Assembly (NCBI GenBank): GCA_016202485.1
Contig: JACQOP010000030.1
Span: forward strand, 1-33,650
Reading direction: 5' to 3'
From: Chloroflexota bacterium
Lineage (GTDB): Bacteria; Chloroflexota; Dehalococcoidia; Lucifugimonadales; JACPCL1
Length of the DNA: 33,650 nucleotides
The notes below the pieces were generated by a model. It was not told the DNA's origin. It saw only the letters and a program-made list of their open reading frames with translations, and searched no databases. This document shows positions 19,770 to 33,194 of the stretch, one piece after another; position 1 is the first letter of the stretch; every line of letters starts with the position of its first letter. Position numbers and translations under genes: made by a program.

Positions 19770-20936
19770 ATGCAGGGAACGCGATTCGAAAAGCATTTGC
19801 TCGGAATATGCCCTCACTGTCATGGTTCCTTTTCTTTAACAGGAAAGGGAAATCTCTATGGCCATAACTGTAATGGCAGCATGCGCTACGGAGAGAAGCC
19901 TGTTCCTGACTCAATGCAGACATACGAGACCATCCAACAAGAAAAGAAGGAAACCGATTGGATAGGAAAGAGGCCAATGGTGGTGGTAGAACCTTTGGTT
20001 GGAATAAATGACGAAACGAGGGCTTCCCTATTTGGGGCAATTAATGTAGTTGAGGAGATTGCCGGAGACTTGCCAGACATTGAGATACCCAAAAATGAAG
20101 TTGAAGCGCTCTTGTGTTTCAATTGCGGTTCCCTTGTCCCAGATGACAGGAGGCATCCCCTCTATTGTACGGAGTTTTGCAGACAGGTAGCCGAAACAGT
20201 TCGCTACCATAGAAGAGTAATGGCAGATGGACGTTACGAGCAAGACTTTCCTGTGAAAGAAGCCATAGATGTAAGACTACAGAAGCTATGTCAGGGCGTA
20301 GTAGTTAGAAAGAATAGGATATCACCAGCCCTGCGTAAGCGTGTCTTTGACCGTACAGACGGGCTCTGTGCCCAGGGTTGTGGAAAGCCTGCGACCGATT
20401 TAGACCACATAAACGGCAGAGGCGAAGGCAACGTTGAGAGCAATCTCCAAGGCCTTTGCCAGGCTTGCCATTTGAAGAAAAGCAAGAAGGACGCTAAAAC
20501 GCTCTCCCAGGAGATGAAATCGGAAAGAGAACAAATCGATGAGAAGGGACTGCTAAATGGCTTTTTGCAAAGATATACAGTCAGAGTATATAGACCGATA
20601 CCCTCCTTAATTTGTGACAACCCTGATGAATGGCCAGGTATGTGGCAAAGCATTGCCCAAAAGCGAAGGGCAATCCGCAAACAGAGAGAGGCCGCTCAAA
20701 GAAGAACTTTAGCCAGCACCTCACCTCTGTCCAAGGCCACTCCTATAACGAACTCAGCTAAGGATATGCAACGTCGTGCAAAGGCTGTTAAACAGACTCA
20801 ACATAACCGTGAAAGGAAATTAGAGTTTGCCATCAAAGCATACCACAAAACAGGCAAGCTCTTTAGCTTTCATCCGGCATATATGACTTGGATTGCTCTA
20901 GAATCGTACTTTGGAATTAAACGAGAGGGGATTTAG
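19770..20936 (+). CDS. HNH endonuclease domain protein with N-terminal Cys-rich motifs
   Basis: HNH core GLCAQGCGKPATDLDHINGRGEGNVESNLQGLCQACHLKKSKK; Cys motifs CPHCHGSFSLTGKGNLYGHNC and CFNCGSLVPDDRRHPLYCTEFC; AGGAGG upstream of ATG. Confidence 0.85.
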   Translation: MQGTRFEKHLLGICPHCHGSFSLTGKGNLYGHNCNGSMRYGEKPVPDSMQTYETIQQEKKETDWIGKRPMVVVEPLVGINDETRASLFGAINVVEEIAGDLPDIEIPKNEVEALLCFNCGSLVPDDRRHPLYCTEFCRQVAETVRYHRRVMADGRYEQDFPVKEAIDVRLQKLCQGVVVRKNRISPALRKRVFDRTDGLCAQGCGKPATDLDHINGRGEGNVESNLQGLCQACHLKKSKKDAKTLSQEMKSEREQIDEKGLLNGFLQRYTVRVYRPIPSLICDNPDEWPGMWQSIAQKRRAIRKQREAAQRRTLASTSPLSKATPITNSAKDMQRRAKAVKQTQHNRERKLEFAIKAYHKTGKLFSFHPAYMTWIALESYFGIKREGI

Positions 20937-30769: not shown

Positions 30770-30856
30770 TGTGGGACTCCTTACCAACTCAGCCAGGCCA
30801 GTACAAGCTCGCCAATCACCCGGCATATGCGGTGGGCCATCCAAACTCAATTGACC

Positions 30857-31030
30857 CTAGCGCCTACTCCCTGGAGTGAAGTCATCCCTAAGCCAACGAA
30901 CAAAGCTATCAGAATGTTGGATGTAAGTCGCCTTTGTAGACTGAGCAAGTACGACCGCTTCGACTTCCCGTTTGTATTGCTCTAGCGCCTTCTCTATCTG
31001 TTCCAAACATTGCAGGGGAATCTTTGGCAT
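30857..31030 (-). CDS. 57-aa protein resembling the SAM-like core-binding segment of tyrosine recombinases
   Basis: Not in the ORF track (<60 aa). Translation MPKIPLQCLEQIEKALEQYKREVEAVVLAQSTKATYIQHSDSFVRWLRDDFTPGSRR*, preceded by GGAGGG; TKATYIQHSDSFVRWL resembles integrase N-terminal helices. Confidence 0.55.
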   Translation of the reverse strand: MPKIPLQCLEQIEKALEQYKREVEAVVLAQSTKATYIQHSDSFVRWLRDDFTPGSRR

Positions 31031-31068
31031 GTCGCCCTCCGATCGTCTATCAGTAAATTGGATGGTAA

Positions 31069-31491
31069 TTACGCCTTTTCTATTTCCTGGAAGCCTAATC
31101 GGCGGAGGATGCCCCTAGCCCTATTGGTTGTAAACACGTTTGCTGGGTAGTCAAAGCCAGGGTGGCGTCGCCTTAATGCGGCTTTCACCAATGGCCAAAC
31201 TGGATAGTACGTTTCCTTACCTTGGCTGTCCTCTAATTCAACGAAGTACTTCTGCCCCCTTCCGGTGACACCTGCTTTAGCAGCTTCTTTAATGTTAGCC
31301 TGAGAGACCTCGTATTCCTTGCCCTTTATGACCACGGTGATTTCGGAAGGGAATCTTAGGACATGCCTCTTGCCCTGATCTAGATTGGCAAGGGACACTG
31401 AATGATCTGGGCCAGTTTCCTCTGGCTCTGACCTGACCAAAGCCAATTCCAGGGTCTCGCCACAGGACGGACATACCATAAGCATCGTCAC
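31069..31491 (-). CDS. hypothetical protein with N-terminal zinc-ribbon-like CxxC
   Basis: MTMLMVCPSCGETLELALVRS...; AGGTGTG before ATG; 140 aa; A/T-richer context. Confidence 0.6.
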   Translation of the reverse strand: MTMLMVCPSCGETLELALVRSEPEETGPDHSVSLANLDQGKRHVLRFPSEITVVIKGKEYEVSQANIKEAAKAGVTGRGQKYFVELEDSQGKETYYPVWPLVKAALRRRHPGFDYPANVFTTNRARGILRRLGFQEIEKA

Positions 31492-31527
31492 ATCACACCT
31501 CCATAGAATCGTATCTTGACGACGCCT

Positions 31528-31556
31528 ACAATACCCCCTCTGTAACTAGATGTCAA
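31528..31556 (-). promoter_or_regulatory. candidate sigma70-type promoter for the 31491-30857 cassette
   Basis: On the minus strand TTGACA (31556-31551), 17-nt spacer, TATTGT (31533-31528). Confidence 0.5.
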
Positions 31557-31614
31557 TATAACCATCTCTTGCATACATGTAGCCTATCATTCTCTATAGA
31601 TCAACTCCTGTTTC

Positions 31615-32241
31615 CTACCTTCTTCGTTCCCTTAGCACCTTCCACACGTCCTCCGGCGACGCGCCGGATGCCGCCAGGAGCACCAGGGTGTGGTACAACA
31701 GGTCGGCGGCCTCCTGGGGCAGGTGCTCTTTGTCGCCGGTGGCTGCGGCAAGGGCAGTTTCGCCTGCTTCTTCTATCACCTTCTGGGCGATGCGGGGTAC
31801 GCCTTCCTGGAACAGGGAGGTAGTGTAGCTGCCTTCGGGCATATCCCGCTTGCGCTGCTGGATGACGGCGAAGAGCTCGTCCAGGATGCCTGCGCCGGAT
31901 TCGTGGCGCTGGTATTCCTCCGGCTTCGGTGTCTCTGCCAGCGGCGTGAAGAAGCAGGAGGTGTTCCCTGTGTGGCACGTCGGCCCCTCAGGATGCACCT
32001 GGAAGAGGAGCACATCGCCGTCGCAGTCCGCCGAGGCTGAAACGAAGTTCAGGTAGTTGGCCGAGGTCTCGCCCTTCATCCACAGGTCCTGGCGGCTGCG
32101 GCTGTAAAACCAGACGCGGCCTTCTGCAAAGGTGCGTTGGATGGTGTCTGGGTTCACGTACCCCACCATCAGCACCTCCTTGGTGTTGGCGTCCTGCACC
32201 ACCGCCGGCGCTAGGCCACGCTCGTCCAGCCTGATGTTCAT
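31615..32241 (-). CDS. hisIE: bifunctional phosphoribosyl-AMP cyclohydrolase / phosphoribosyl-ATP pyrophosphatase
   Basis: LAPAVVQDANTKEVLMVGYVNPDTIQRTFAEGRVWFYSRSRQDLWMKGETSANYLNF (HisI) and LFAVIQQRKRDMPEGSYTTSLFQEGVPRIAQKVIEEAGETALAAATGD (HisE). Confidence 0.95.
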   Translation of the reverse strand: MNIRLDERGLAPAVVQDANTKEVLMVGYVNPDTIQRTFAEGRVWFYSRSRQDLWMKGETSANYLNFVSASADCDGDVLLFQVHPEGPTCHTGNTSCFFTPLAETPKPEEYQRHESGAGILDELFAVIQQRKRDMPEGSYTTSLFQEGVPRIAQKVIEEAGETALAAATGDKEHLPQEAADLLYHTLVLLAASGASPEDVWKVLRERRR

Positions 32242-32574: not shown

Positions 32575-32802
32575 ATGGTAAACGTGCAAATTCGTAATGT
32601 CCCGCAGGATGTGCATCGCACCCTCAAAGAGCGGGCGGCCAAGCATGGGATGTCCCTGTCAGGGTATCTTCTTCAGCAAATAGAAGCCCTGGCGGAGCGC
32701 CCTACGATGGAGGAGATTCTAGAGCGGCTAAGTCACCATGAGCCGGTGAATCCCTCCATAAGTCCGGCTGACATCATCCGCGAGGAAAGGGACAGCCGCT
32801 GA
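32575..32802 (+). CDS. antitoxin, FitA/VapB-like ribbon-helix-helix protein
   Basis: MVNVQIRNVPQDVHRTLKERAAKHGMSLSGYLLQQIEALAERPTMEEILERL; immediately upstream of a PIN-domain gene. Confidence 0.88.
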   Translation: MVNVQIRNVPQDVHRTLKERAAKHGMSLSGYLLQQIEALAERPTMEEILERLSHHEPVNPSISPADIIREERDSR

Positions 32803-32807
32803 GTATC

Positions 32808-33194
32808 GTGTTGGATGCCTCGGCGCTCTTGGAGTTCTTGCTGCGTACTGATGCTGGCCTGCGCCTTCGTGAGCGGCTTCGGGATGAGCCTGGTCCAATC
32901 CATGCACCGCAAATAGTGGACTTGGAGGTCGCCCAAACGCTCCAAAGGCTCCTATTCAGGGGAGAATTGACGACCGCCAGGGGCCAGCAAGCCTTGCAGG
33001 TGCTTTACGATATGCCGATCCAGCGGTATCCGCACCGTCCGTTGCTCCACCGCATTTGGGAACTGAGAGCAACTATCACCGCCTACGATGCGGCGTACAT
33101 CGCGCTGGCTGAGGCCCTTGACGCGCCGCTTTGGACTCGGGACGGCAGGCTGGCGGAGGCAACGGGCCACCGCGCCGTGGTGGAGCTGGTCTAG
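32808..33194 (+). CDS. vapC: PIN domain ribonuclease toxin, VapC family
   Basis: VLDASALLEFLL (first Asp), DLEVAQTLQRLL, YDAAYIALAEALDAPLWTRDGRLAEA. Confidence 0.92.
   Translation: MLDASALLEFLLRTDAGLRLRERLRDEPGPIHAPQIVDLEVAQTLQRLLFRGELTTARGQQALQVLYDMPIQRYPHRPLLHRIWELRATITAYDAAYIALAEALDAPLWTRDGRLAEATGHRAVVELV

What the first reader, a model, noticed from the sequence alone, without database searches (positions are those of the whole stretch)
30857..31491. A/T-richer two-gene cassette: zinc-ribbon protein plus mini recombinase-like protein
Two co-directional minus-strand ORFs (140 aa, 57 aa; 38-nt gap) with their own promoter (TTGACA-17-TATTGT) sit between the LLM oxidoreductase and hisIE in a visibly A/T-richer island. 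The first has CPSCGETL and a C-terminal ...TTNRARGILRRLGF helix; the second resembles only the core-binding segment of a tyrosine recombinase. The function is not obvious from known systems. A regulatory or defence-type cassette is speculation.
Basis: partly seen in the sequence, partly recalled or inferred. Interest (0 to 1): 0.6.

Follow-up and report, generated by a model that had tools for sequence, protein, structure and literature searches.

The report
Acquired two-gene regulator-like cassette
Between two ordinary genes, a Chloroflexota bacterium carries a small, probably acquired pair of genes: one a likely DNA-binding regulator of the kind attached to toxin antidotes, the other a tiny helical protein of unknown job; both are real, but their pairing was seen nowhere else.

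Summary
The two ORFs, the 38-nt gap, the A/T-richness and the neighbours are as described, and both ORFs are real genes with homologues. The pair is not a recurrent cassette: among 285 same-class genomes, 14 carry the ORF1 domain and 4 clear ORF2 relatives; only this genome has both. The ORFs fill a variable slot: a congener has hisIE and the LLM gene 21 nt apart where this contig has 842 nt (GC 0.49), and two other congeners have unrelated small modules at the hisIE end. ORF1's C-terminal domain is related to NCBIfam's uncharacterised SCO5918 family. In 13 of 25 Chloroflexota loci it belongs to toxin-antitoxin-type modules: nine N-terminal to HicB next to HicA, four just upstream of PIN or PIN-like genes. 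It also lies in an McrB-EVE protein. I therefore read ORF1 as an antitoxin-type DNA-binding regulator (inferred). Its "zinc ribbon" is a single CPxCG knuckle. ORF2 belongs to a rare family of stand-alone 57-71 aa proteins whose predicted helical hairpin weakly matches the N-terminal SAM-like region of tyrosine recombinases. Whether ORF2 is ORF1's partner is unproven.

The parts
31069..31491 (-). ORF1, 140 aa: N-terminal single CPxCG knuckle plus C-terminal SCO5918-like domain (about residues 48-137)
   Evidence: full-length homologue L003 at 38% identity; profile built without ORF1 and L003 finds ORF1 at E 2e-8 against 0.012 for the best of 5000 shuffles; hhalign 98.8%
30857..31030 (-). ORF2, 57 aa stand-alone helical hairpin, motif FVRWLxDDFxPG
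   Evidence: homologues at 30-56% identity in Chloroflexota, Acidimicrobiia and one IMG/VR contig; AlphaFold2 pLDDT 92.8, helices 6-25 and 30-47
30773..31614 (.). variable slot, 842 nt between the hisIE stop codon and the LLM ATG; the congener G632 has 21 nt here
31528..31556 (-). candidate sigma-70-like promoter TTGACA-17-TATTGT
   Evidence: 0.8 expected by chance, so position is the only support
31479..31528 (-). candidate operator: inverted repeat TAGGCGTCGTCA ... TGACGATGCTTA (10 of 12 pairs, 26 nt apart) from the -10 element to the ORF1 start
   Evidence: 33 of 300 shuffles reach it, so only suggestive
31497..31502 (-). Shine-Dalgarno GGAGGT of ORF1
   Evidence: sequence
31035..31040 (-). 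Shine-Dalgarno GGAGGG of ORF2
   Evidence: sequence
31615..32241 (-). hisIE, upstream border of the slot
   Evidence: PF01502, PF01503
29717..30772 (-). LLM (luciferase-like) oxidoreductase, downstream border of the slot, start revised to ATG 30772
   Evidence: PF00296; congener start

Best explanation
A small, probably laterally acquired two-gene cassette in a variable slot between hisIE and an LLM oxidoreductase. ORF1 is most likely a DNA-binding, autoregulatory repressor: its C-terminal SCO5918-like domain is the module that HicB-type and VapB-type antitoxins of related bacteria carry N-terminally, where a DNA-binding domain is expected; its single CPxCG knuckle may bind zinc across a dimer. 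ORF2 is a stand-alone helical hairpin probably expressed with ORF1 and, by position, may be its partner or an accessory protein. Shown: real genes, homology of the ORF1 domain to the antitoxin-fused domain, different slot contents in congeners, no recurrent pairing. Inferred: DNA binding, autoregulation, zinc binding, co-transcription, lateral acquisition. Unknown: what ORF2 does.
For: Domain homology and NF038312 hits of its relatives. Of 25 accepted loci of the domain, 13 are toxin-antitoxin-type contexts: nine HicB fusions next to HicA (L045-L049, L052-L054, L068; HicB_lk_antitox and HicA_toxin by Pfam in the members tested) and four small proteins overlapping or abutting a PIN or PIN-like gene (L051, L063, L067, L069). 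The domain also sits in an McrB-EVE protein (L055) and 9 nt upstream of a methylase-like gene (L062). Experimentally studied HicBs carry a C-terminal HTH/RHH DNA-binding domain, and other classes an N-terminal Phd/YefM one (PMC10865869); the fused HicBs show no Pfam HTH, RHH or Phd/YefM domain (two tested) and carry this domain instead. Slot comparison in three congeners. ORF2's stand-alone form is under purifying selection in another genus of the class (dN/dS about 0.11-0.18).
Against: No DNA binding is shown for the SCO5918-like domain; no solved relative and no confident model of ORF1 (pLDDT 38). The only near-full-length homologue of ORF1 (L003) has no partner gene. ORF2 relatives are mostly solitary. 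The operator-like repeat is not significant, and the promoter is at chance expectation. The domain in front of ftsA-like genes (L050, L065, L066) shows that it is not confined to toxin-antitoxin modules.
Confidence: 0.55

Rival explanations
1. Two unrelated small genes that happen to lie side by side after insertion into a permissive intergenic slot; no functional link between them.
For: No co-occurrence elsewhere; each family is found without the other; the slot holds unrelated genes in congeners.
Against: Same strand, 38-nt gap, similar low GC, each with its own strong Shine-Dalgarno sequence, so co-transcription is likely.
Confidence: 0.4
2. ORF1-ORF2 is a two-gene toxin-antitoxin-type module: ORF1 the antitoxin and repressor, ORF2 the effector in the downstream position where HicA or PIN toxins lie after this domain.
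For: Gene order of antitoxin-domain gene then small gene as in L045-L049 and L051; one ORF2 relative lies 28 nt downstream of a DUF433 gene (L026); one congener holds a CopG-antitoxin gene with an overlapping partner at the same hisIE end.
Against: ORF2 relatives are mostly solitary and no other genome of 285 in the class has both genes; ORF2 resembles a helical recombinase segment, not a known toxin; ORF1 ends with its domain and has no recognisable toxin-neutralising tail.
Confidence: 0.2
3. ORF2 is a decaying remnant of a tyrosine recombinase from the element that delivered the cassette.
For: hhalign of the family against recombinase N-termini: 44 columns, probability 97%.
Against: Relatives in several genera end at the same point after DDFxPG with no catalytic domain downstream; purifying selection; no recombinase motif within 4-20 kb of any relative examined or in the window.
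Confidence: 0.04

Closest known systems
SCO5918 family (NCBIfam NF038312, hypothetical, 98 positions)
   Same: Relatives of the ORF1 C-terminal domain match it below cut-off (L049 7e-8, L059 5e-8, L051 8e-5, L003 0.019).
   Different: ORF1 itself does not reach the model; ORF1 adds an N-terminal CPxCG knuckle and a longer loop before the last helix.
HicBA toxin-antitoxin modules, classes 5-6 of PMC10865869 (N-terminal Phd/YefM DNA-binding domain on HicB)
   Same: The Chloroflexota fusions have the antitoxin gene upstream, an extra N-terminal domain on HicB, and an overlapping toxin gene.
   Different: Their N-terminal domain is SCO5918-like; ORF1 has the domain without HicB, and ORF2 is not HicA.
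VapBC-type modules with a PIN toxin
   Same: The same domain is carried by a small protein overlapping or abutting PIN genes (L051, L067, L069; PIN-like L063).
   Different: No PIN gene is next to ORF1; the FitA/PIN pair of the window is on the other side of hisIE.
N-terminal SAM-like core-binding domain of tyrosine recombinases (PF13495 and relatives)
   Same: About 44 residues align by profile; 3 of 10 family members match PF13495 weakly.
   Different: Two helices only, no catalytic domain, family-specific DDFxPG tail; no recombinase among PDB matches by sequence or fold.

Membership tests
SCO5918 family (NF038312) | score above the curated cut-off (60 bits) | tested here: not met
   ORF1: no hit at E up to 5; relatives 15-33 bits
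SCO5918-like domain (as defined by alignment) | found by a profile that excludes ORF1 and L003 | tested here: met
   E 2.4e-8 with the more distant rows only; best of 5000 shuffles 0.012
Zinc ribbon | two CxxC-type knuckles in one chain | tested here: not met
   only Cys7 and Cys10 in ORF1; one knuckle also in L003
Type II toxin-antitoxin module | recurrent adjacency of the two genes across genomes | tested here: not met
   only the window's genome among 285 in the class
Type II toxin-antitoxin module | known toxin family in the second gene | tested here: not met
   no significant Pfam, NCBIfam, PADLOC or PHROGs family for ORF2
Type II toxin-antitoxin module | second gene toxic and neutralised by the first; operator binding | not testable with these tools
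   needs expression and binding assays
Tyrosine recombinase | catalytic domain with R-H-R-Y residues | tested here: not met
   ORF2 and its relatives end after DDFxPG; no recombinase motif in flanks
SAM-like core-binding domain of tyrosine recombinases | fold and sequence of the N-terminal helical domain | tested here: inconclusive
   two-helix hairpin predicted, no Foldseek match with E <= 0.001, weak profile match
Known anti-phage defence system | PADLOC model match | tested here: not met
   no family for either ORF

The most novel reading that the evidence does not exclude
The SCO5918-like domain is an unrecognised DNA-binding module shared by HicB antitoxins, VapB-type antitoxins, an McrB-EVE restriction protein and stand-alone regulators, and ORF1-ORF2 is a toxin-antitoxin-like module of a new type whose effector is a recombinase-like helical hairpin.
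Probability: 0.1. Interest if true: 0.65.

Novelty: new variant of a known kind. Interest (0 to 1): 0.35.

Why it matters
The pair itself is a minor accessory locus, but it leads to a small domain that NCBIfam holds only as a hypothetical family and that recurs as the N-terminal module of antitoxins of two unrelated toxin families and in a restriction protein. If it is a DNA-binding domain, it would explain how these HicBA and VapBC modules are regulated, and it would suggest a function for the SCO5918 family. It also documents a family of 57-71 aa proteins that keep only a recombinase-like helical hairpin, and a variable slot at the hisIE end that holds small modules in this genus.

Tried and rejected
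Curated family libraries for both ORFs: nothing significant. Plasmid and phage tblastn with ORF1 and with ORF2 relatives: no match. A viral scan with the HicB fusion gave L061, a chance peptide match inside another protein. Weak domain hits in polynucleotide phosphorylase (L056-L058; L056 read) and in an overlapping frame (L070) were rejected as spurious. A defence island around ORF2 relatives: GmrSD restriction genes near two of eleven loci, otherwise mainly housekeeping genes. A mobile element with its own integrase: no recombinase motif near the ORF2 relatives or in the window and no tRNA in the window. Known RNA families: none. Foldseek of ORF2: no match with E <= 0.001. Literature search for SCO5918 and for stand-alone SAM-like recombinase domains found nothing relevant.

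Full report
OBSERVATION. Each has a strong Shine-Dalgarno sequence at a good distance (sequence). The stretch is A/T-richer than its neighbours (0.49 against 0.63 for hisIE and 0.67 for LLM). The promoter-like site exists, but 0.8 such sites are expected by chance per kilobase here, so only its position, 36 nt upstream of the ORF1 start, speaks for it. Pfam confirms the LLM oxidoreductase and hisIE. The window is a whole contig of a 1.87-Mb draft genome, 77% complete. The phylum is Chloroflexota: contig C13 of G013, a genome of the same phylum, has the same length and genes as JAJPGV010000062.1, titled Chloroflexi.

THE SLOT. In a congener (G632) hisIE and the LLM gene are direct neighbours: after the hisIE stop codon come 21 nt that carry the LLM Shine-Dalgarno, and then the LLM ATG. 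The window has 842 nt at the same place. This also shows that the window's LLM gene most likely starts at ATG 30772. A second congener (G631) has at the hisIE end a CopG-antitoxin gene with an overlapping gene of unidentified family, and a third (G633) an AAA_15/AAA_21 ATPase with an overlapping 152-aa gene; a homologue of the window's 33459-33650 gene upstream of hisIE ties both to the same locus. The slot is therefore variable in this genus. An insertion in the window is the simplest reading; a loss in G632 is not excluded by four genomes.

ORF1. No curated family matches it. A near-full-length homologue (L003, 38% identity, E 1.6e-7) occurs in another family of the class, with the same N-terminal CPxCG and no ORF2. 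Only two cysteines are present, so the 'zinc ribbon' is half a ribbon. A profile of the C-terminal part found further relatives. A profile of only the more distant of these, with ORF1 and L003 left out, finds ORF1 at E 2.4e-8, while the best of 5000 shuffled sequences reaches 0.012; profile-profile comparison gives 98.8%. Relatives match NF038312, the hypothetical SCO5918 family, below its cut-off.

CONTEXTS OF THE ORF1 DOMAIN. I accept 25 loci, after removing spurious hits in polynucleotide phosphorylase and one overlapping frame. Nine are N-terminal fusions to a HicB-type antitoxin immediately followed by a hicA-type gene (Pfam: HicB_lk_antitox 1e-7 and 1e-8, HicA_toxin 3e-16 in the members tested). 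Three are small proteins whose gene overlaps a PIN-type gene (PF01850 1e-7 in L051), and a fourth (L063) overlaps a PIN-like frame that did not reach Pfam's threshold. One is inside an McrB-like protein, between its N-terminal part and its EVE domain (L055). One lies 9 nt upstream of a methylase-like gene (L062; sub-threshold N6_N4_Mtase), one next to DUF7662 (L064), three in front of a gene that I read as ftsA (L050, L065, L066; by eye, not tested). The others, ORF1 and L003 among them, have no such partner. Published HicB antitoxins carry a C-terminal HTH or RHH domain or an N-terminal Phd/YefM domain for DNA binding, or none that can be recognised (PMC10865869). The fused HicBs here show no HTH, RHH or Phd/YefM domain by Pfam (two tested) and carry the SCO5918-like domain instead. 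The simplest inference is that this domain binds operator DNA. That is inference, not a result.

ORF2. Relatives of 57-71 aa with the motif FVRWLxDDFxPG are scattered over Chloroflexota, Acidimicrobiia and one IMG/VR contig. They are mostly solitary: one follows a DUF433 gene by 28 nt (L026), two lie near GmrSD genes. The model is a confident two-helix hairpin (pLDDT 92.8). Four of the weaker hits of the family profile lie in the N-terminal region of proteins that are tyrosine recombinases by their sequence (L035, L036, L038, L040), and all four score above 10,000 shuffled sequences; those four were chosen by the same profile, so the test is not independent. PF13495 matches 3 of 10 members weakly. 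A fold search finds nothing significant. The copies in G039 and G263 show dN/dS of about 0.11-0.18, so the stand-alone form is kept by selection.

CO-OCCURRENCE. In 285 genomes of the class the ORF1 domain is in 14 and clear ORF2 relatives in 4; only the window's genome is in both sets. In 400 genomes of the phylum the same holds apart from G246, whose two hits are the McrB protein and a recombinase. About 0.2 shared genomes are expected by chance in the class (14 x 4 / 285). The pair is therefore not a recurrent module in this sample; metagenome collections could not be searched.

MECHANISM. I think it most likely that ORF1 is a small autoregulatory DNA-binding protein and that ORF2 is expressed with it. 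An inverted repeat, TAGGCGTCGTCA/TGACGATGCTTA, reaches from the -10 element to the start codon and would be a fitting operator, but 11% of shuffles do as well. Whether ORF2 is an effector, a helper or a bystander cannot be told from the sequence.

VERDICT. Interest 0.35.

Noticed in passing
L045-L049, L052-L054, L068: HicB-type antitoxins with an N-terminal SCO5918-like domain, followed by HicA. From the passages read, this arrangement is not among the 14 classes of PMC10865869 (supplement not read).
   Followed up: partly
L051, L067, L069, L063: Small proteins with the same domain overlapping or abutting a PIN or PIN-like gene, as a VapB antitoxin would be.
   Followed up: partly
L055:187-2355: McrB-like protein with the same domain between its N-terminal part and an EVE domain.
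   Followed up: no
L050, L065, L066: The domain protein directly in front of a gene that looks like ftsA in three genomes of one family; the overlap or short gap suggests co-translation.
   Followed up: no
L101:6728-8265: AAA_15/AAA_21 ATPase with an overlapping 152-aa gene of no known family at the hisIE end of a congener; a possible two-gene defence module.
   Followed up: no
L100:5896-6680: CopG-antitoxin gene with an overlapping gene of unidentified family (BrnT-like by eye) at the hisIE end of another congener.
   Followed up: partly
window 32575-33194: FitA-like RHH antitoxin and PIN toxin pair upstream of hisIE, shared with congener G631 at 73-80% identity.
   Followed up: partly
window 19770-20936: Second A/T-rich island (GC about 0.47) with a 388-aa HNH-like protein behind a UvrD-like helicase gene; weak PF01844 match.
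   Followed up: no
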